Below, in pieces: positions 2,179 through 57,704 of a stretch of DNA of 64,000 nt (its first letter is position 1; every line of letters starts with the position of its first letter). The stretch covers positions 3,571,307 through 3,635,306 of the forward strand of contig NZ_KK073875.1 of NCBI RefSeq assembly GCF_000585395.1, in the 5' to 3' direction. The notes beneath the pieces are model-generated. The model had not been told where the DNA came from and ran no database searches. It was given only the letters and a program-made list of their open reading frames with translations. The stretch comes from Saccharibacillus sacchari DSM 19268. GTDB lineage: Bacteria > Bacillota > Bacilli > Paenibacillales > Paenibacillaceae. The translations under genes and the position numbers were made by a program.

Positions 2179-3105
2179 ATGCAGCGTATTCAAGCCACTC
2201 GTACTTTGCAAGGCACCACAGTAGCAGGCCTCATCCATAACGGCGGACAATACTTTTACGTGCAAGTCGAAATTTACGAGGACGGGACCTTTGATTGCTG
2301 GGAACGCGTCGACTTGGCCGGGGTGCAAGAAAAAATTCATTCCGGTTGGTTAGTGTCTTCCGTTCCGGCAGGCCAGACGTTATCCATTCATGGACTGGGC
2401 GCTTATCGGCTCAAACAGGCAGAATGGCTCTATGATGCGAAGCGTTATGTTCAACATTTGCTAGAAAAAGTGAAAGAACTTAATCCGCATATGTTGAATG
2501 TATATACGATGCCCGAAGACACAGACGATAACGCTTTTATCTCTAAAAGAAGTCCTTTCTCCGCCGGGAAGCCGATTCGGGACATCGGAACAGGATTGCG
2601 CAAGCCGGTAGAAGGCAAAGGGTTCCATTTGTTGAAGCGTACAGACGCGAAGGTTAGCCTGGTCGAGTTAGTCCTCTATGCAAACGGCTCGGCAGTGCTC
2701 TACGAAGGGGCGGAAGAGCATGAGTATTCTCCATGGGAAAAAGTGTTGGAGCACATCGACCAAGGCATCCTGTGCACCCAACTGAAGCCGCAGTCTGAAG
2801 TTCATATTCCCGACCTAGGCACTATAACCGTCGAAGAAACGCTGTACGACGTAGACGTCTCCGAGAAACGCCAAGAATTAATCGACGAAATGAACGCCTT
2901 GCAAGGAAAAGAAACCTCGCTGGAAGCTTGCCGACAAGCCTATATCGATTACCTGATCGACCCCAATAAATGGGCGAGACAGCGACTAAAAGAAGCCTAC
3001 GAAAAAGTGCCGGAGCATCTGCGCATGTACTTGGGCAGCATGGACGATAAGGATAGCGATTATGTACGGATCATTGATCGCCCCCATGAAAAAAGAGAAG
3101 TATAA
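2179..3105 (+). CDS. Conserved-looking hypothetical protein
   Basis: The product has 308 residues and no signal peptide or membrane segment. It begins at ATG 2179 after CAGGAAGTGATGG, 22 bp behind the flavin oxidoreductase stop. It looks like two related strand-rich halves: residues about 12-60 (VAGLIHNGGQYFYVQVEIYEDGTFDCWERVDL) and about 160-210 (VSLVELVLYANGSAVLYEGAEEHEYSPWEKVL), each followed by a stretch ending in a glycine-containing turn and helix. This suggests an internal duplication. A helical tail (EMNALQGKETSLEACRQ, then DPNKWARQRLKEAYEKVP) ends the protein. I do not recognise the family. A strong terminator follows. Confidence 0.7.
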   Translation: MQRIQATRTLQGTTVAGLIHNGGQYFYVQVEIYEDGTFDCWERVDLAGVQEKIHSGWLVSSVPAGQTLSIHGLGAYRLKQAEWLYDAKRYVQHLLEKVKELNPHMLNVYTMPEDTDDNAFISKRSPFSAGKPIRDIGTGLRKPVEGKGFHLLKRTDAKVSLVELVLYANGSAVLYEGAEEHEYSPWEKVLEHIDQGILCTQLKPQSEVHIPDLGTITVEETLYDVDVSEKRQELIDEMNALQGKETSLEACRQAYIDYLIDPNKWARQRLKEAYEKVPEHLRMYLGSMDDKDSDYVRIIDRPHEKREV

Positions 3106-3126
3106 TCGCAAATGATTAAAGTCCAT

Positions 3127-3164
3127 GCAAGAAAAGAAAGCGCCTTTGAGCGCTTTTTTTCTTG
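3127..3164. terminator. Rho-independent terminator after the 2179-3105 gene
   Basis: A long A-rich/T-rich hairpin: GCAAGAAAAGAAAGCGC (3127-3143) pairs with GCGCTTTTTTTCTTGC (3149-3164) around a short loop. The run of T in the 3' arm makes it a forward terminator. It separates the upstream hypothetical gene from the methyltransferase. Confidence 0.8.
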
Positions 3165-3250
3165 CCATCCATTTACTAATCGACTATTATGGATATATGA
3201 TATCTCTAATAACCCAATCAACACTCCGGAAAGGTCATGGTGAACGCATA

Positions 3251-4138: not shown

Positions 4139-4154
4139 CCTCATTTTGACCGAG

Positions 4155-4195
4155 CCGGCACGGATGTTCAATCGAACGTCAGTGCCGGATTTTTT
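4155..4195 (+). terminator. Terminator with a repeated 3' half (copy R1)
   Basis: CCGGCAC (4155-4161) pairs with GTGCCGG (4182-4188), followed by ATTTTTT. The segment 4163-4199 is repeated almost exactly at 5502-5538 (about five differences in 37 bp). Confidence 0.75.
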
Positions 4196-4272
4196 GTGCG
4201 TAAATTTTTGCTCGGACACAACGATCAAGCGCCTCGATGCGTTCAATAGATAAGAAGTCAGGAGGGAAGAAC

Positions 4273-5466: not shown

Positions 5467-5538
5467 GAAAAGGCCGGATCGTCAGCAATTGATCCCGGAT
5501 AGATGTTGCAGCGAACGTCTGTGCCGGATTTTTTGTGC
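5467..5538 (+). terminator. Double hairpin terminator, copy R2
   Basis: Two stem-loops lie downstream of the HD-like frame: GGCCGGATC (5472-5480) pairs imperfectly with GATCCCGG (5491-5498), and CCGGAT near 5495 can pair instead with the GTGCCGG at 5521-5527 before TTTTTT. Positions 5502-5538 repeat 4163-4199. The alternative pairings resemble a terminator with an upstream competitor stem, but no function is evident. Confidence 0.55.
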
Positions 5539-5597
5539 CTCAAAAGAAGAAGCGGTATACTGAGAAGCATGAGACCTTACGAAAAGAGAAGGAATGA

Positions 5598-12276: not shown

Positions 12277-12300
12277 GATTCTGTTGGGAATCTTCAAGCT

Positions 12301-12564
12301 GTCGAGAAAGTCACGTTTGCGTGAGAAGTCACCAGACTCCGAGAAAAATTCGTTAGCGGATGCTTACGAAGTGGCTTTCTCCGAAAGCCTGTAGGTCGCG
12401 TGTTGAAATCGAGAAAACTGATTGAACTTTTATTTGTATTTTCCCAATTTCAAAGGCGAACTATAGCATAGGCTTCCGAAGTGCATTTCTTCGAAATGCT
12501 TCAGCTCCTTCACTGAATTTTTCCCTCCGCCTGCTGACTTCCAGCTACGTTGGACTTTCTCGAC
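12301..12564. repeat. Family-1 palindromic element, copy A
   Basis: A long imperfect palindrome of about 264 bp: GTCGAGAAAGTC (12301-12312) is an exact inverted match to GACTTTCTCGAC (12553-12564). Its left arm (about 12325-12420) matches the reverse complement of 57430-57522, and its right arm holds two shared blocks: the 39-bp hairpin module at 12465-12503 and CTGAATTTTTCCCTCCGC at 12513-12530. It fills the otherwise gene-free 12277-12600 stretch, starting about 25 bp after the Zn-ribbon gene's stop codon. Confidence 0.8.
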
Positions 12565-12624
12565 ACCTCGATTTTTGACAGGATCTTTTTAATTTATATT
12601 GTAGTGATGTAGGAGGAAATATAG

Positions 12625-13594: not shown

Positions 13595-13700
13595 TACTTG
13601 CCTCAGGGCGATACATGTTTGTGCTTTACTAAATATCTACCTAAGTTCTATATTCTCCTCATCACACAAAGCCCGGATGCACTTCCTCGGGCTAATCGGT

Positions 13701-13881
13701 CTTGAAGATCCTATTCTAGCGCAGCGGAGGGAGAAATTCAGATTAAGACGCCTTTGAACGCGGAAAGCCATAGGCTTTCTGCGTGAAACAGCGTCTTATA
13801 AAGCATTTCGAAGAAATGCGCTTCGGAAGCATATGCTGGAATTTATCCCGTAGCCGCTCTGCAACGAATAGGACCTTCAAG
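13701..13881. repeat. Family-1 palindromic element, copy B1
   Basis: An element of 181 bp bounded by inverted repeats CTTGAAGATCCTATTC (13701-13716) and GAATAGGACCTTCAAG (13866-13881), one mismatch in 16. A second inner stem is TAAGACGC/GCGTCTTA, and the tip is ACGCGGAAAGCC-ATA-GGCTTTCTGCGT. It carries GCGGAGGGAGAAATTCAG (13724-13741), found inverted in copy C, and the hairpin module in reverse orientation at about 13800-13838. The right terminal repeat contains the stop codon of the minus-strand Crp/Fnr gene. Confidence 0.85.
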
Positions 13882-14590
13882 ACCCGCCCGGCGAAAATGC
13901 AGCCGGCTTCAAAATCCCGATCTCCCATCTCCCGCGCTGCTCGATCCACCCGTTCGCCTCAAACGCGGCCAACTTCCGGCTGATCGTCTCCGGCGTAGTC
14001 CCCAGCAACGAAGCCAGATCCCGCCGCGTCATTGGAAGCTTGACGTCCCACGTCGCTTGTTCCTCGGCTTGGCGAGCCAAATATAGTTGCAACCTAGTTT
14101 CGGTATCCTCTGCCGTAAAACGCGCCGCTCGCGCTTCCGCTTGCTCCAACCGACTCGATAACTCCTGCAAAATCTTGAGAGAGATATCCGGATAGCGCAG
14201 CATCAGCTGTTCCAGATCACGCCGACCGATCCGGCAGACCTCGGTCGTTTCCGTCGCTTCGGCGAAACAATCGTGCATCGACTGATTGAACAGAGCGAAT
14301 TCACCCGTGAAGCTGCCTTCCCGCAATACTCGGACAAGCTGCTCTTTTCCGTTTTCGGCAAGACGATAGACTCGCAACGCTCCCCGATGAACCATAAAAA
14401 GCGAATCCGATACGTCCCCGGCCCGATATAATAACTCGCCTTTGCGCAGCGGAATCGATCGAATGGTCGCAGCGATATCTGTTAATTGATCCGGATGCAA
14501 GTGATTGAAGATCGGCACGCGGGCAACGCAAAGTTCATGCCCTTCGAGAGTCTCCGTTATAGGGTGATTACAACTTTGTTCGGACGACAT
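13877..14590 (-). CDS. Crp/Fnr family transcriptional regulator
   Basis: The protein has 237 residues. An N-terminal cyclic-nucleotide-binding-type beta-roll spans about residues 25-125 (LRKGELLYRAGDVSDSLFMVHRGALRVYRLAENGKEQLVRVLREGSFTGE). It is followed by the dimer helix and a winged HTH with MTRRDLASLLGTTPETISRKLAAFE near residue 190-215, the typical Fnr recognition helix. Cysteines are at 7, 21, 108 and 119; the E. coli FNR N-terminal four-Cys cluster pattern is absent, so the sensing chemistry is uncertain. It is the last gene of the HMA-ATPase-regulator operon, starting 2 bp after the ATPase stop, and probably binds the FNR-type box at 16807. Confidence 0.9.
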   Translation of the reverse strand: MSSEQSCNHPITETLEGHELCVARVPIFNHLHPDQLTDIAATIRSIPLRKGELLYRAGDVSDSLFMVHRGALRVYRLAENGKEQLVRVLREGSFTGEFALFNQSMHDCFAEATETTEVCRIGRRDLEQLMLRYPDISLKILQELSSRLEQAEARAARFTAEDTETRLQLYLARQAEEQATWDVKLPMTRRDLASLLGTTPETISRKLAAFEANGWIEQRGRWEIGILKPAAFSPGGS

Positions 14591-20649: not shown

Positions 20650-20857
20650 CTTGAAGATCCTGTTCGTGGGGGGAAGCTCGGGCGCTGCGGGAGAAATTGC
20701 CAGCATAGGCTTCCGAAGTGCATTTCTTCGAAATGCTTCACAAGACGCTGTCTCACTCGGAAAATGGATTGAATTTAAATAAGGAATTTTCCGAGTTCAA
20801 AGGCGTCTTTCACTGAATTTCTACCTCCGCGTGGCGCTTGCCCGGAAAAGGATCTTC
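20650..20857. repeat. Family-1 palindromic element, copy B2, inside an operon
   Basis: Bounded by TTGAAGATCCTGTTC (20651-20665) and GAAAAGGATCTTCAA (about 20845-20858), one mismatch. An inner stem is ACTCGGAAAAT/ATTTTCCGAGT. It carries the 39-bp hairpin module at 20702-20740, identical to 12465-12503, and CTGAATTTCTACCTCCGC at 20813-20830. It begins 5 bp after the stop of the first permease gene and separates it from the second, so the transcript would contain a long hairpin. Confidence 0.85.
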
Positions 20858-20946
20858 AACAGTACGTAAATTCGCTCGTTATGTAAGGGGAAGAAAGAAA
20901 GGGAAGAAAAGCAAACAAGAAAGCAGGCAAAAAGGAGGGGAAGCTC

Positions 20947-54546: not shown

Positions 54547-55671
54547 ATGCAAAGTCCAGTGATTGGCACAACCAGAACAAAACCGCCTTTTCGCTGCGAT
54601 CTCGTCGGCAGCTTCCTGCGGCCGCCGGAGCTGATCGAAGCCCGGAAGCTGCATCGGGAAGGAGCGCTTACGGACGAGGGGTTAACGGAGCTTGAGACGG
54701 CAGAGATCATTAAGCTTATACAGCGTCAAAAAGAAGCCGGGCTTCCCGTCGTCACCGACGGCGAGTTCCGGCGCTCATGGTGGCATCTCGATTTCTTTTT
54801 CGGCGTTGAAGGCACCGAAAAGATTGATCTGAACGCGGCCGCAGGACGTACGGATGCCAAGCAGCGGGCGGAAACGTTCCGCGTCGCGAATAAAATTTCG
54901 TTCGGCGACCACCCCATGCTGCGTCATTTCGAGTCCTTGCGCGATCTTGCGGCGGGAAGCGGCATGATGCCCAAAATGACCATTCCTTCGCCGGCGTTGT
55001 TCCATTTCGTTCAACGGTACAACGGCGGGAATGCTTATGCGGGAGACGAAGAGCTGTTCGCGGATATCGTGCACGTGTACCGGGATGCGATCCAGGCCTT
55101 TTACGATGCGGGTTGTCGATACTTGCAGCTTGACGATACCTCTTGGGGAACGTTGTGCAGCTTGCTGCATCGCACGCAGCTGCGCAGCCAGGGTACGGAC
55201 CCGGATCAGCTCGCGGCCGATTACGTGCGGCTCATTAACGAGTCGATCGCGGAGCGTCCGGACGATATGGTCATTGCACTGCATGTCTGCCGGGGGAATT
55301 TCCATTCGACGTGGTTCGCTTCGGGCGGTTACGAACCTGTGGCGGAAGCATTGTTCGGCGGCTGCAAAGTGGATGCCTTTTTCCTGGAGTACGATAACGA
55401 ACGCGCAGGAGGCTTCGAACCGCTTCGCTTTATCCGTGACCAATTCGTCGTACTGGGATTGGTGACCACCAAGCACGGAGGACTGGAAAGCAAAGAAGCG
55501 TTGAAAGCACGGATTGCGGAAGCCGCTTCGTTCGTGTCGATCGATCAGCTTTGCTTGAGCACGCAGTGCGGCTTCGCTTCGACCGAGGAAGGCAATCTGT
55601 TGACAGAAGACGAGCAATGGGAAAAAATTCGCCTTGTTGCGGAGACGGCTGCGGAAGTGTGGCCGGGCTAA
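54547..55671 (+). CDS. MetE-like B12-independent methionine synthase family protein (YxjG/YxjH type), copy 1
   Basis: ATG 54547 follows GGGAGG; earlier starts lie inside the LysR gene. The 374-residue protein corresponds to the C-terminal half of MetE: FRCDLVGSFLRPPELIEARKL, VVTDGEFRRSWWHLDFFFG, LQLDDTSWG, and the zinc ligands in ALHVCRGNFHSTW (His-x-Cys) and STQCGFASTEEG (Cys). It lacks the N-terminal folate-binding duplicate barrel, as in YxjG/YxjH, whose methyl donor is uncertain. A similar gene lies 251 bp downstream. Regulated probably by the adjacent LysR protein. Confidence 0.9.
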   Translation: MQSPVIGTTRTKPPFRCDLVGSFLRPPELIEARKLHREGALTDEGLTELETAEIIKLIQRQKEAGLPVVTDGEFRRSWWHLDFFFGVEGTEKIDLNAAAGRTDAKQRAETFRVANKISFGDHPMLRHFESLRDLAAGSGMMPKMTIPSPALFHFVQRYNGGNAYAGDEELFADIVHVYRDAIQAFYDAGCRYLQLDDTSWGTLCSLLHRTQLRSQGTDPDQLAADYVRLINESIAERPDDMVIALHVCRGNFHSTWFASGGYEPVAEALFGGCKVDAFFLEYDNERAGGFEPLRFIRDQFVVLGLVTTKHGGLESKEALKARIAEAASFVSIDQLCLSTQCGFASTEEGNLLTEDEQWEKIRLVAETAAEVWPG

Positions 55672-55921: not shown

Positions 55922-57067
55922 ATGAGCACGATTTTCGAGCAAGCCGTTCAACGAGACACCGTACCTTTCCGTCACGACATCGTAGGCAGCTTCTTGCGTC
56001 CGCAAGCGATCAAGGATGCGCGAATCAAGTTCGCCGCAGGCGAGATCGATGCAGCCGCTCTTCGCAAGATCGAAGACGAAGAGATTATCAAGCTGGTCGA
56101 AAAGCAAAAAGAAGTCGGTCTCAAAGGCGTAACGGACGGCGAATTCCGTCGCTCGTGGTGGCACCTCGACTTCTTCTGGGGCCTCGGCGGCGTCAGCAAG
56201 AAAGCGTCGGATACAGGGTATCTGTTCCATGGCGTGGAATCCCGTGCGGAAACCGCCCTGCTGATCGGCAAAGTCGGCGAAGGCGCGAAGCATCCGATGG
56301 TCGAAGACTTTAAGTTCCTGAACAGCGTAGCCGGCGACGACGCCGTGGCACGCCAAACGATCCCGGCTCCGGCGCAGCTGCTGTTCGAACTGTTCCGCGG
56401 CGACAACATCAAGACGGTCGACGAGTTTTACCCGAACCGTCAAGATCTGTATACGGATGTCGCAACGGCTTACCGCGATGCGATCTTGGCCTTCTACGAA
56501 GCCGGATGCCGCAACATCCAACTCGACGACTGCACATGGGGCGCGCTGAGCGACCGTCAATTCCGCGCAATGCAGGACGAAGCGGGCGTAGACATCAACG
56601 AGATGGCAAAAGGATTCCTGTTCGTCAACAACTTGGCGATCGAGAACCTGCCTGCTGATCTCGTCGTGACGACGCATGTATGCCGCGGCAACTTCAAATC
56701 GACCTATGCCGGCGAAGGCGGCGGCTATGATCCGATCGCGGAAATCCTGTTCGCGGGCTCTAACGTGTCGGCGTTCTACCTGGAATACGACAGCGAGCGC
56801 GCAGGCGGATTCGAGCCGCTGAAATACGTGAAGGACCAACAAGTCGTGCTCGGTCTGTTCAGCTCGAAATTCGGCGAGCTGGAAGACAAAGAGCAGATCC
56901 TCAAGCGGATCGAGGAAGCGGCTCAGTACGTGGACATCAACCAATTGTGCGTCAGCCCGCAGTGCGGCTTCGCTTCGACGGAAGAAGGCAACGTGTTGAC
57001 GGAAGAGCAGCAGTGGGCGAAGCTGAAGTTCGTGAAGGAAGTCGCCGAGGAAGTATGGGGAGCGTAA
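55922..57067 (+). CDS. MetE-like B12-independent methionine synthase family protein (YxjG/YxjH type), copy 2
   Basis: ATG 55922 follows GAGGAGGAAC. The 381-residue protein is a paralogue of the preceding gene: FRHDIVGSFLRPQAIKDARIKF, GVTDGEFRRSWWHLDFFWGLGG, IQLDDCTWGALS, with ligand segments VVTTHVCRGNFKSTY and SPQCGFASTEEGNVL. Codon use is strongly biased (many GGC, GAC and AAC codons), suggesting high expression. TATAGT at 55785-55790 could be a -10, leaving a leader of about 120 nt. No S-box riboswitch was recognised in it. A family-1 palindrome begins 2 bp after the stop. Confidence 0.92.
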   Translation: MSTIFEQAVQRDTVPFRHDIVGSFLRPQAIKDARIKFAAGEIDAAALRKIEDEEIIKLVEKQKEVGLKGVTDGEFRRSWWHLDFFWGLGGVSKKASDTGYLFHGVESRAETALLIGKVGEGAKHPMVEDFKFLNSVAGDDAVARQTIPAPAQLLFELFRGDNIKTVDEFYPNRQDLYTDVATAYRDAILAFYEAGCRNIQLDDCTWGALSDRQFRAMQDEAGVDINEMAKGFLFVNNLAIENLPADLVVTTHVCRGNFKSTYAGEGGGYDPIAEILFAGSNVSAFYLEYDSERAGGFEPLKYVKDQQVVLGLFSSKFGELEDKEQILKRIEEAAQYVDINQLCVSPQCGFASTEEGNVLTEEQQWAKLKFVKEVAEEVWGA

Positions 57068-57068
57068 A

Positions 57069-57237
57069 ACCCCTGTTCGTTGGGGAAGCTTAGGGGCGCT
57101 GCGGGAGAAATTCGTTCAAGTCGCTGTCTCAGCAGGACTTTTCAATTTGAATATGTATTCAAACTGAAAAGTCCTGCTTCAAAGGCGCCTTTCACTGAAT
57201 TTCTCCCTCCGCTTGAAGCTTCCGTTAATGACAGGGC
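57069..57237. repeat. Family-1 palindromic element, copy C
   Basis: About 169 bp: CCCCTGTT near 57070 and ACAGGG (57231) at the ends, GGAAGCTT (57084-57091) against AAGCTTCC (57216-57223), and a nearly perfect 23-bp tip stem starting AGCAGGACTTTTCA (57138) and ending TGAAAAGTCCTGCT. It carries CTGAATTTCTCCCTCCGC at 57195-57212. It follows the MetE-like gene's stop by 2 bp, and a run of T after 57238 suggests it also acts as terminator. Confidence 0.83.
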
Positions 57238-57287
57238 TTTTTTTAGGGAGTAAAAAAGCAAAATTAAAAAGAATAGAAAACGAAAAA

Positions 57288-57315
57288 AGTCTCGGTTCTT
57301 GGAACCGAGGCTTTT
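57288..57315 (+). terminator. Terminator-like hairpin left of copy D
   Basis: CTCGGTTC (57291-57298) pairs perfectly with GAACCGAG (57302-57309), followed by GCTTTT. Confidence 0.75.
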
Positions 57316-57342
57316 AAGTTATCGAAAACAAGCGACGTAACT

Positions 57343-57522
57343 GGAAGCGAGAAGACGGAGAGGGAAGTTCAGTGAAGGAATGAAATGTTCGCCTTTGAAA
57401 TCGGGAAAATACCACTAAAAATTTTAATTTTTCCCGATTTCAACACGCGACCTACAGTCTTTCGGAGAAAGGCACATCGGAAGCATTCGCTAACGAACTT
57501 CCCTCGGAGTCTTCTCGCTTCC
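57343..57522. repeat. Family-1 palindromic element, copy D
   Basis: Outer arms GGAAGCGAGAAGAC (57343-57356) and GTCTTCTCGCTTCC (57509-57522) are a perfect inverted pair, as are the inner arms TTGAAATCGGGAAAA (57395-57409) and TTTTCCCGATTTCAA (57429-57443). Read as reverse complement it aligns along its whole length with copy A. It stands in tandem with copy C, and the 637-bp gap 57068-57704 holds no gene. Confidence 0.87.
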
Positions 57523-57554
57523 CCCACCTACGCAGCTTTTTCGAAAAACGCAAA

Positions 57555-57585
57555 AGTTTCGGTTCTTACAGCCGGGACTTTTTTT
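57555..57585 (+). terminator. Terminator-like hairpin right of copy D
   Basis: AGTTTCGGTT (57555-57564) pairs with GCCGGGACT (57571-57579), using G-T pairs, followed by TTTTTT. It resembles the 57288 hairpin. Confidence 0.6.
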
Positions 57586-57704
57586 ATGGGGAGAAAAAGA
57601 GTAGAATAGGGAACCAAATAGACCGACAGCATGGGCGTCATGAGAATCGAGATGAGCGGATTCAAGTCCAAGGAGCTGCAAGGAAAAGGAGCGAAGAGAA
57701 TTCC

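What the first reader, a model, noticed from the sequence alone, without database searches (positions are those of the whole stretch)
12465..12503. A movable 39-bp hairpin module shared exactly by two elements and inverted in a third
12465-12503 and 20702-20740 are identical, while 13800-13838 is the same module in reverse orientation with about three differences. In copy D the equivalent place in one arm is only about 7 bp, while a diverged version of the module sits in the other arm (about 57455-57490). The module thus appears to be gained, lost or moved within a conserved scaffold, a feature of composite repeats.
Basis: seen in the sequence. Interest (0 to 1): 0.72.

Follow-up and report, generated by a model that had tools for sequence, protein, structure and literature searches.

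The report
Interchangeable hairpin cassette in bacterial repeats
A 39-letter hairpin is one swappable part of a repeat scattered, by estimate, several hundred times between the genes of a Saccharibacillus bacterium; comparing two species shows that such parts come, go and change at fixed places while the outer frame mostly stays, which makes these repeats a natural testbed for how bacterial genomes shuffle small DNA parts.

Summary
The 39-mers at 12465-12503 and 20702-20740 are identical; the third copy (13799-13837, minus strand) has three differences. 57453-57491 is not 'the other arm' of copy D but the 5' arm of a neighbouring, oppositely oriented element. The organism is a Saccharibacillus. 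Its genome holds 68 module copies (59 exact over 29 nt), all inside a palindromic scaffold of about 200-300 bp, estimated at 360-400 copies. The module sits in a 5'-arm or a 3'-arm slot, in one orientation relative to the scaffold. In 620-644 kb of synteny with S. endophyticus the module is in only one species at 7 of the 10 parsed shared sites that carry it in the 5' slot. The core hairpin is replaced too: outer arms are closest to the ortholog at 17 of 24 sites, the hairpin at 6 of 24. Two elements are inverted in place. Four empty/filled site pairs show one terminator hairpin in the empty allele and a copy on each side of the insert. Best reading: a MITE-like, terminator-targeted composite repeat whose hairpin modules are exchanged between copies, probably by gene conversion. 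Closest known kind: BOX. The enzymes are unknown.

The parts
12300..12565 (+). Composite element A: P-type outer arms, Y-type core, diverged module in the 5' arm, exact module in the 3' arm
   Evidence: profile match and feature call; ends read from the sequence
12465..12503 (+). 39-bp hairpin module M1 in the 3'-arm slot of element A
   Evidence: exact repeat; context class 3' arm
12355..12393 (+). Diverged module (M2) in the 5'-arm slot of element A
   Evidence: 72% ungapped identity to M1 (D3); same stem with compensating changes
13700..13883 (-). Composite element B: Q-type arms, X-type core, M1 in the 5' arm; the syntenic stretch of S. endophyticus is 107 bp against 3.2 kb here and has no element
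13799..13837 (-). Module M1 with three differences, 5'-arm slot of element B
20651..20859 (+). Composite element C: Q-type arms, X-type core, M1 in the 5' arm, between two genes in tandem; the S. endophyticus ortholog has the same outer arms but a Y-type core and no M1
20702..20740 (+). Module M1, 5'-arm slot of element C, identical to 12465-12503
57070..57237 (+). Composite element D1: Q-type arms, X-type core, no module (7-nt linker CGTTCAA)
57320..57546 (-). Composite element D2: P-type arms, Y-type core, diverged module in the 5' arm
57453..57491 (-). Diverged module (M2) of element D2
57285..57316 (.). Terminator-like hairpin flanking D2 on one side
   Evidence: direct-repeat score 19 against the hairpin on the other side; mismatched-pair control 99th percentile 13, maximum 17
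57552..57586 (.). Terminator-like hairpin with T-run flanking D2 on the other side, a diverged copy of the first

Best explanation
The 39-bp module is one optional part of a high-copy, protein-less, palindromic mobile repeat of the genus Saccharibacillus. SHOWN: each element is a nest of stems (outer arms of at least two types, an inner stem GAAATT/AATTTC, a core hairpin with near-constant flanking motifs, and optional side hairpins of which the module is one). Elements lie between genes, next to the 3' end of at least one gene. In four places where an empty and a filled allele can be compared and the empty allele holds a terminator-like hairpin, the filled allele has that hairpin on both sides of the element. 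At fixed sites the module, the core hairpin and the 3' linker differ between two species while the outer arms mostly stay, and two elements are flipped in place. INFERRED: the element is inserted by an unidentified enzyme with a staggered cut about as long as the terminator hairpin, so that the hairpin is doubled; interior parts are overwritten by gene conversion from other copies in the same genome, using the conserved motifs as homology; recombination between the two arms flips whole elements. The strict conservation of the module suggests a sequence-specific binding partner or repeated homogenisation.
For: 68 module copies in G000, 59 exact over 29 nt, 8 with one and 1 with three mismatches, reversed-pattern control 0; all 68 inside scaffolds: 48 5' arm X core (one truncated), 5 5' arm Y core, 14 3' arm, 1 core-less element. 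38 elements in 644 kb of G000 and 26 in the 400-kb sample. Of 24 parsed shared sites: 5'-arm module in both species 3, G000 only 6, G006 only 1, neither 14; median identity over the 22 non-inverted sites: outer arms 0.89 and 0.91, hairpin 0.66; hairpin below the outer-arm mean at 16 of 22, Wilcoxon p=0.002. Outer arms closest to the ortholog at 17 of 24, hairpin at 6 of 24. Single-cassette difference A388456/B408560. In-place inversions A188729 and A210338. Terminator doubling in four empty/filled pairs: B40523, A251805, B335500, B353654; among 41 P-type elements 10 exceed the 99th percentile of mismatched flank pairs, 0 of 2000 permutations reach the observed mean. 0 of 38 elements centred inside a gene, 13 convergent, 25 tandem, 0 divergent. 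Covariation of the X core in 27 distinct copies: 95.7% of cells paired, 16 of 26 pairs changed on both sides, 0 of 500 shuffles. The module stem covaries at two pairs among 41 distinct variants. A tandem pair of modules in the 3' slot of one element of G013.
Against: No transposase or other mobilising gene was found, though only four places were opened for it. Significant flank duplication is seen in only 10 of 41 P-type elements; inverted similarity of flanks scores at least as high, so palindromy rather than duplication could explain part of it; B498866 shows an insertion without clear duplication. At 7 of 24 sites the outer arms too are closer to another copy, so exchange is not confined to the interior. 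Some replaced hairpins have no close match among the copies held (best 0.71 and 0.80 for A97072 and A233015). No conversion tract with donor was mapped. The module alone folds no better than shuffled sequence (z -0.63).
Confidence: 0.72

Rival explanations
1. The module is itself a tiny mobile element (or is moved by a dedicated site-specific recombinase) that inserts into and leaves two attachment slots of the scaffold; homologous gene conversion is not needed.
For: Same 39-bp boundaries in two unrelated contexts; single-cassette difference A388456/B408560; near-perfect sequence identity of 59 of 68 copies and exact 25-mers in five genomes besides G000 and G006 (G001, G005, G011, G012, G013).
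Against: Never found outside a scaffold: 0 of 68 and 0 of 81. Core hairpin and 3' linker are exchanged in the same way, which a module-specific mechanism does not explain. The adjacent stem base changes with the cassette in A388456/B408560 (GTCGC to GACGC), as a conversion tract would give. No candidate enzyme seen.
Confidence: 0.13
2. A structured regulatory RNA family: each copy acts as RNA in the 3' region of mRNAs (termination, RNA stability), and stems are kept by selection.
For: Strong covariation; element C folds far better than shuffles (z -4.81); location next to 3' ends of genes.
Against: No strand preference relative to neighbouring genes (12 same, 13 opposite among 25 tandem cases); in-place inversions; G-T pairs (35) are fewer than A-C mismatches (83) on the strand with the conserved motifs (231 elements; 38 of the 83 fall on one hairpin position, so this is at most weak evidence for the other strand); no Rfam family. 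Hairpins kept symmetrical by DNA-level correction would covary too.
Confidence: 0.12
3. No exchange inside fixed elements: each lineage received independent insertions of whole elements into the same terminators (hot spots), which mimics exchange.
For: Elements favour terminators, so repeated hits are possible; outer arms are closer to another copy at 7 of 24 sites.
Against: At 17 of 24 sites the outer arms are closest to the ortholog although the hairpin is so at only 6 of 24; in A388456/B408560 everything but the cassette is nearly identical.
Confidence: 0.03

Closest known systems
BOX elements of Streptococcus pneumoniae and S. suis (PMC3049150; passages seen)
   Same: Composite interspersed repeat of end modules and optional inner modules; inner modules gained and lost between strains; in S. 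suis different end modules (A/C or E/F) surround the same inner module, like the P and Q arms here; predicted to fold as a stem structure in which the optional module hardly touches the rest.
   Different: Here the whole core hairpin is replaced by quite different self-complementary hairpins at fixed sites, the optional module has two slots and is single in all 68 copies of this genome (a tandem pair was seen once, in another Saccharibacillus genome), elements flip in place, and a terminator hairpin is doubled around several insertions. No sequence relation was tested.
bcr1 repeats of the Bacillus cereus group (the 2004 paper seen only as a reference entry)
   Same: Repeat of a Bacillales group with a conserved predicted structure (table) and mobile-element characteristics (title of the 2004 paper).
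   Different: bcr1 is listed at 167 bp and 31 copies in B. anthracis (table), against about 200-300 bp and an estimated several hundred here; swappable hairpins were not seen in the passages read. Otherwise not compared.
REP/BIME mosaics and REPINs (titles and abstract starts only)
   Same: Mosaics of palindromic units between genes in high copy.
   Different: REP units are 20-40 bp, many with GTAG or CGTC tags (PMC3733652), and REP-associated tyrosine transposases are described (PMC2817692); neither tag nor transposase was searched for here.
MITEs in general (definition read in PMC3049150)
   Same: Short, protein-less, inverted-repeat ends, high copy, polymorphic between species.
   Different: No autonomous partner found in a small search; the duplicated piece around insertions is a hairpin of about 18-24 bp that differs from site to site, not a duplication of fixed length.

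Membership tests
MITE | short element without its own protein gene | tested here: met
   about 200-300 bp; 0 of 38 elements centred inside a gene called by a codon-usage script; element sequences are taken up by stems
MITE | terminal inverted repeats | tested here: met
   outer arms pair in the folds of the five window elements and of element C; P-type end sequences listed
MITE | insertion polymorphism with an empty site | tested here: met
   B40523, A251805, B335500, B353654, B498866
MITE | target-site duplication | tested here: inconclusive
   terminator hairpin doubled in four empty/filled pairs; 10 of 41 P-type elements show significant flank repeats; length varies with the hairpin; B498866 shows none
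MITE | ends shared with an autonomous transposon of the same host | tested here: inconclusive
   20 matches to the P-type terminus; by eye 16 belong to known P elements, the other 4 were opened and no transposase was seen; more diverged termini and Q-type ends not tested
BOX element | modular: constant ends, optional inner modules that vary between strains | tested here: met
   tested between two species: module and core states differ at orthologous sites
BOX element | variable number of inner modules in tandem | tested here: inconclusive
   none in G000 (closest two of 68 copies 457 bp apart); one tandem pair with a 36-bp period in the 3' slot of an element of G013
BOX element | sequence homology to boxA/boxB/boxC | not tested
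   no BOX sequence was fetched
REP/BIME with RAYT | 20-40 bp palindrome with GTAG/CGTC tag and a REP-associated tyrosine transposase in the host | not tested
   tags and transposase genes were not searched for
known Rfam RNA family | match at the curated threshold | tested here: not met
   0 matches in the window; 3 and 1 matches below the curated score at E up to 5 for elements A and C

The most novel reading that the evidence does not exclude
A dedicated cassette-exchange system of structured DNA: one enzyme system recognises extruded hairpins, inserts the element at terminator hairpins with a hairpin-sized staggered cut (doubling the terminator, much as Cas1-Cas2 doubles a repeat; comparison recalled), and trades hairpin modules between several hundred fixed scaffolds, the 39-bp module being its recognition cassette.
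Probability: 0.15. Interest if true: 0.88.

Novelty: new variant of a known kind. Interest (0 to 1): 0.62.

Why it matters
Bacterial interspersed repeats are usually compared as whole elements. Here an estimated several hundred copies with recognisable parts sit at fixed sites in two species about 82-96% identical in the compared blocks, so gain, loss, swap and inversion of each part can be counted site by site. This makes two questions directly testable: how short palindromic DNA is exchanged between distant chromosomal sites, and whether intrinsic terminators are a landing platform for mobile DNA that keeps termination intact by doubling the terminator.

Tried and rejected
A first, automatic cut of the 'inner' region used a loose pattern that mis-set boundaries; its numbers are not used and were replaced. 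A first version of the part-by-part table mis-set four left boundaries and was replaced. In one search one site (A552500/B584701) could not be parsed and is left out; one search covers 25 pairs, searches cover 24. Of the 29 G000 elements with a G006 element in the syntenic interval, four were dropped before these counts because one partner is partly deleted, interrupted or unclear (A23099, A52295, A386903, A551883). A first count of module copies outside this genome (85) included four loci of G000 itself; the recount without them is 81.

Idea that module orientation follows replication: 46 forward and 22 reverse copies. GC skew of 20 samples gives negative, positive (2.5-3.7 Mb) and again negative blocks, which I could not fit to a simple two-replichore layout; not pursued. 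Rfam families: none. Autonomous partner with P-type ends: four unpaired ends opened, none found. RNA-strand test from G-U pairs: not in favour of the motif strand. The first DNA search of the own genome scored only 40 of 327 candidates, so its 52 matches are not a copy count. In one search the rule against overlapping opposite-strand matches dropped at least one neighbouring element (L046 3676-3889), so 26 and 31 are lower bounds.

Literature: in the open PubMed Central subset; two searches returned no paper. One search found 19 papers with Saccharibacillus, genome and repeat (12 listed, none read). No listing described such repeats in Saccharibacillus; papers outside this library were not searched.

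Full report
OBSERVATION. The two 39-mers 12465-12503 and 20702-20740 are identical. A search with the inner 29 nt finds exactly three places in the window at up to 3 mismatches, against none in 100 shuffles. The third is the minus-strand copy, best placed at 13799-13837, with three differences.

WHERE IT IS. The window lies in a genome of 6,075,237 bp in one contig. Exact copies of the 29-mer in named records all come from Saccharibacillus (68 rows, scan stopped at its limit). Eight of 16 genus genomes have it at up to 3 mismatches; so do 8 of 295 family genomes searched with a 25-mer at up to 2 mismatches, all 8 in this genus. With one module-less scaffold as query, 6 of 118 family genomes matched, all in this genus (a diverged scaffold would be missed).

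THE SCAFFOLD. Profile searches found 31 merged matches in 464 kb, 26 of them in the twenty 20-kb samples, and 38 elements in a contiguous 644 kb, which extrapolates to about 360-400 per genome. Each element is a nest of stems: outer arms (type P, around GGGAAGCGAGAAGACTSCGAGA, or type Q, around GCGCTGCGGGAGAAATT), an inner stem GAAATT/AATTTC, then a core hairpin with near-constant flanks (CGCTGTCTC...TCAAAGGCG in type X, CGCGTGTTG...CAAAGGCG in type Y). P-type ends match 179 (left) and 127 (right) times in the genome at up to 3 mismatches; the left count may include some right ends, which differ from it by about three bases. In 27 distinct X copies without the module, chosen by a fuzzy pattern, 95.7% of stem cells are paired, 16 of 26 pairs have a change on both sides (shuffles 5.2 on average, 0 of 500 as high), and every slide of the partner strand drops pairing to 58.3% or less. 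Element C folds at -86.5 kcal/mol, z -4.81.

THE MODULE. All 68 copies in this genome lie in a scaffold: 48 in the 5' arm of X cores (one truncated), 5 in the 5' arm of Y cores, 14 in the 3' arm, and 1 in an element that lacks a core (with rows). Of 81 distinct copies in 94 loci of other Saccharibacillus genomes, 78 were classed automatically and 3 by eye; none is alone. 59 of 68 copies are exact over 29 nt, 8 have one and 1 has three mismatches. Among 41 distinct 39-mers of the wider module family, two stem pairs covary (C-G, G-C, T-A; A-T, C-G, G-T) with 36 and 38 of 41 paired; four further pairs were mostly fixed by the search pattern and say nothing. Folded alone the module is not more stable than shuffles (z -0.63).

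TWO SPECIES COMPARED. 644 kb of G000 and 620 kb of G006 are collinear; blocks over 4 kb are about 82-96% identical, with 38 elements in each. Of the 38 in G000, 29 have a G006 element in the syntenic interval, 6 have none and 3 could not be placed; 7 G006 elements have no G000 counterpart. At 24 sites parsed part by part the 5'-slot module is in both species at 3, only in G000 at 6, only in G006 at 1, in neither at 14. In A388456/B408560 the two elements are otherwise almost identical, including core hairpin and side hairpin; the linker CGTTCAAGTC stands against the module plus CAAGAC. In A136481/B148617 the module stays and the core changes from X to Y; in A166684/B178999 only the hairpin changes. 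Median identities over the 22 non-inverted sites: left flank 0.91, outer arms 0.89 and 0.91, hairpin 0.66, right flank 0.83. Outer arms are closest to the ortholog at 17 of 24 sites, hairpins at 6 of 24, among 66 parsed elements. Many replaced hairpins match a copy elsewhere at 0.86-1.00, some do not (0.71, 0.80). Two elements are inverted in place (A188729, A210338). Element C of the window is one of the swaps: same outer arms in S. endophyticus, but a Y core and no module. The ortholog of element A carries an X core with the module in the 5' slot and what looks like a second repeat inside its hairpin.

INSERTION SITE. Four empty/filled pairs (B40523, A251805, B335500, B353654) show a single terminator-like hairpin in the empty allele and that hairpin, with differences, on both sides of the element in the filled allele; this was read by eye from the alignments. 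One insertion, B498866, lies within a hairpin without clear duplication; at three other sites (opposite B518162, A359506 and A367952) the other species has only outer-arm remnants. Over 41 P-type elements, flank-to-flank direct similarity exceeds the 99th percentile of mismatched pairs in 10, and no permutation of 2000 reaches the observed mean. Inverted similarity is high as well, as expected for hairpins, so the statistic alone does not prove duplication; the empty sites are the stronger evidence. No element of 38 is centred in a gene, 13 lie between convergent genes, 25 between genes in tandem, 0 between divergent genes although these hold 16.4 of 112 kb of intergenic DNA (genes called by a simple codon-usage script).

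MECHANISM. Shown: modular structure, module and core differences at fixed sites, in-place inversion, intergenic location next to a gene's 3' end, terminator on both sides of several insertions. Inferred: gene conversion between copies as the way parts are replaced, arm-to-arm recombination for flips, a hairpin-sized staggered cut at insertion. Not found: the enzyme. The elements show no preferred orientation relative to genes (12 same, 13 opposite), and G-T pairs are not favoured on the motif strand, so a strand-specific RNA role is less likely than a DNA-level one, but it is not excluded.

KNOWN KINDS. The closest is BOX in streptococci: constant end modules, optional inner modules that vary between strains, two kinds of ends around the same inner module in S. 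suis (PMC3049150, passages). bcr1, REP/BIME and MITEs share single traits. I file it as a new variant of the composite, MITE-like repeat; membership in BOX is not claimed. Searches of the open literature listed no description of it, which is weak evidence given the library's limits.

Noticed in passing
L323 about 2930-3190; G006:C10 ortholog of window element A (B50318-50685): A second palindromic repeat family with ends like GGGCGTGTACGCAAACTC / GAGTTTGCGTACACGCCC; in S. endophyticus one copy appears to sit inside the core hairpin of a composite element.
   Followed up: no
window 4152-4204 and 5491-5543: Two similar terminator-like hairpin stretches with GTGCCGG, 79% identical over 53 nt.
   Followed up: no
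window 55510-55621 and 56906-57017: 112-nt direct repeat, 78% identical, just upstream of element D1.
   Followed up: no
L322 419-1330: A composite element broken in its core, followed by a stretch with an open reading frame (559-993 minus) and a second element in opposite orientation.
   Followed up: partly
L208 about 700-800: A minimal scaffold in which a module hairpin stands in place of the core.
   Followed up: no
L326 200-600 (minus): An element of Saccharibacillus sp. JS10 (G013) with two modules in tandem in the 3' slot, 36-bp period, and a diverged module in the 5' slot.
   Followed up: partly
G006 sites opposite A359506 and A367952; G000 site opposite B518162: Alleles with only the outer arms, or remnants of them, and no interior; either deletions or the ancestral state.
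   Followed up: no
G000 whole genome: GC skew of 20 samples is positive only at 2.5-3.7 Mb and negative elsewhere, and module copies are 46 forward to 22 reverse.
   Followed up: no
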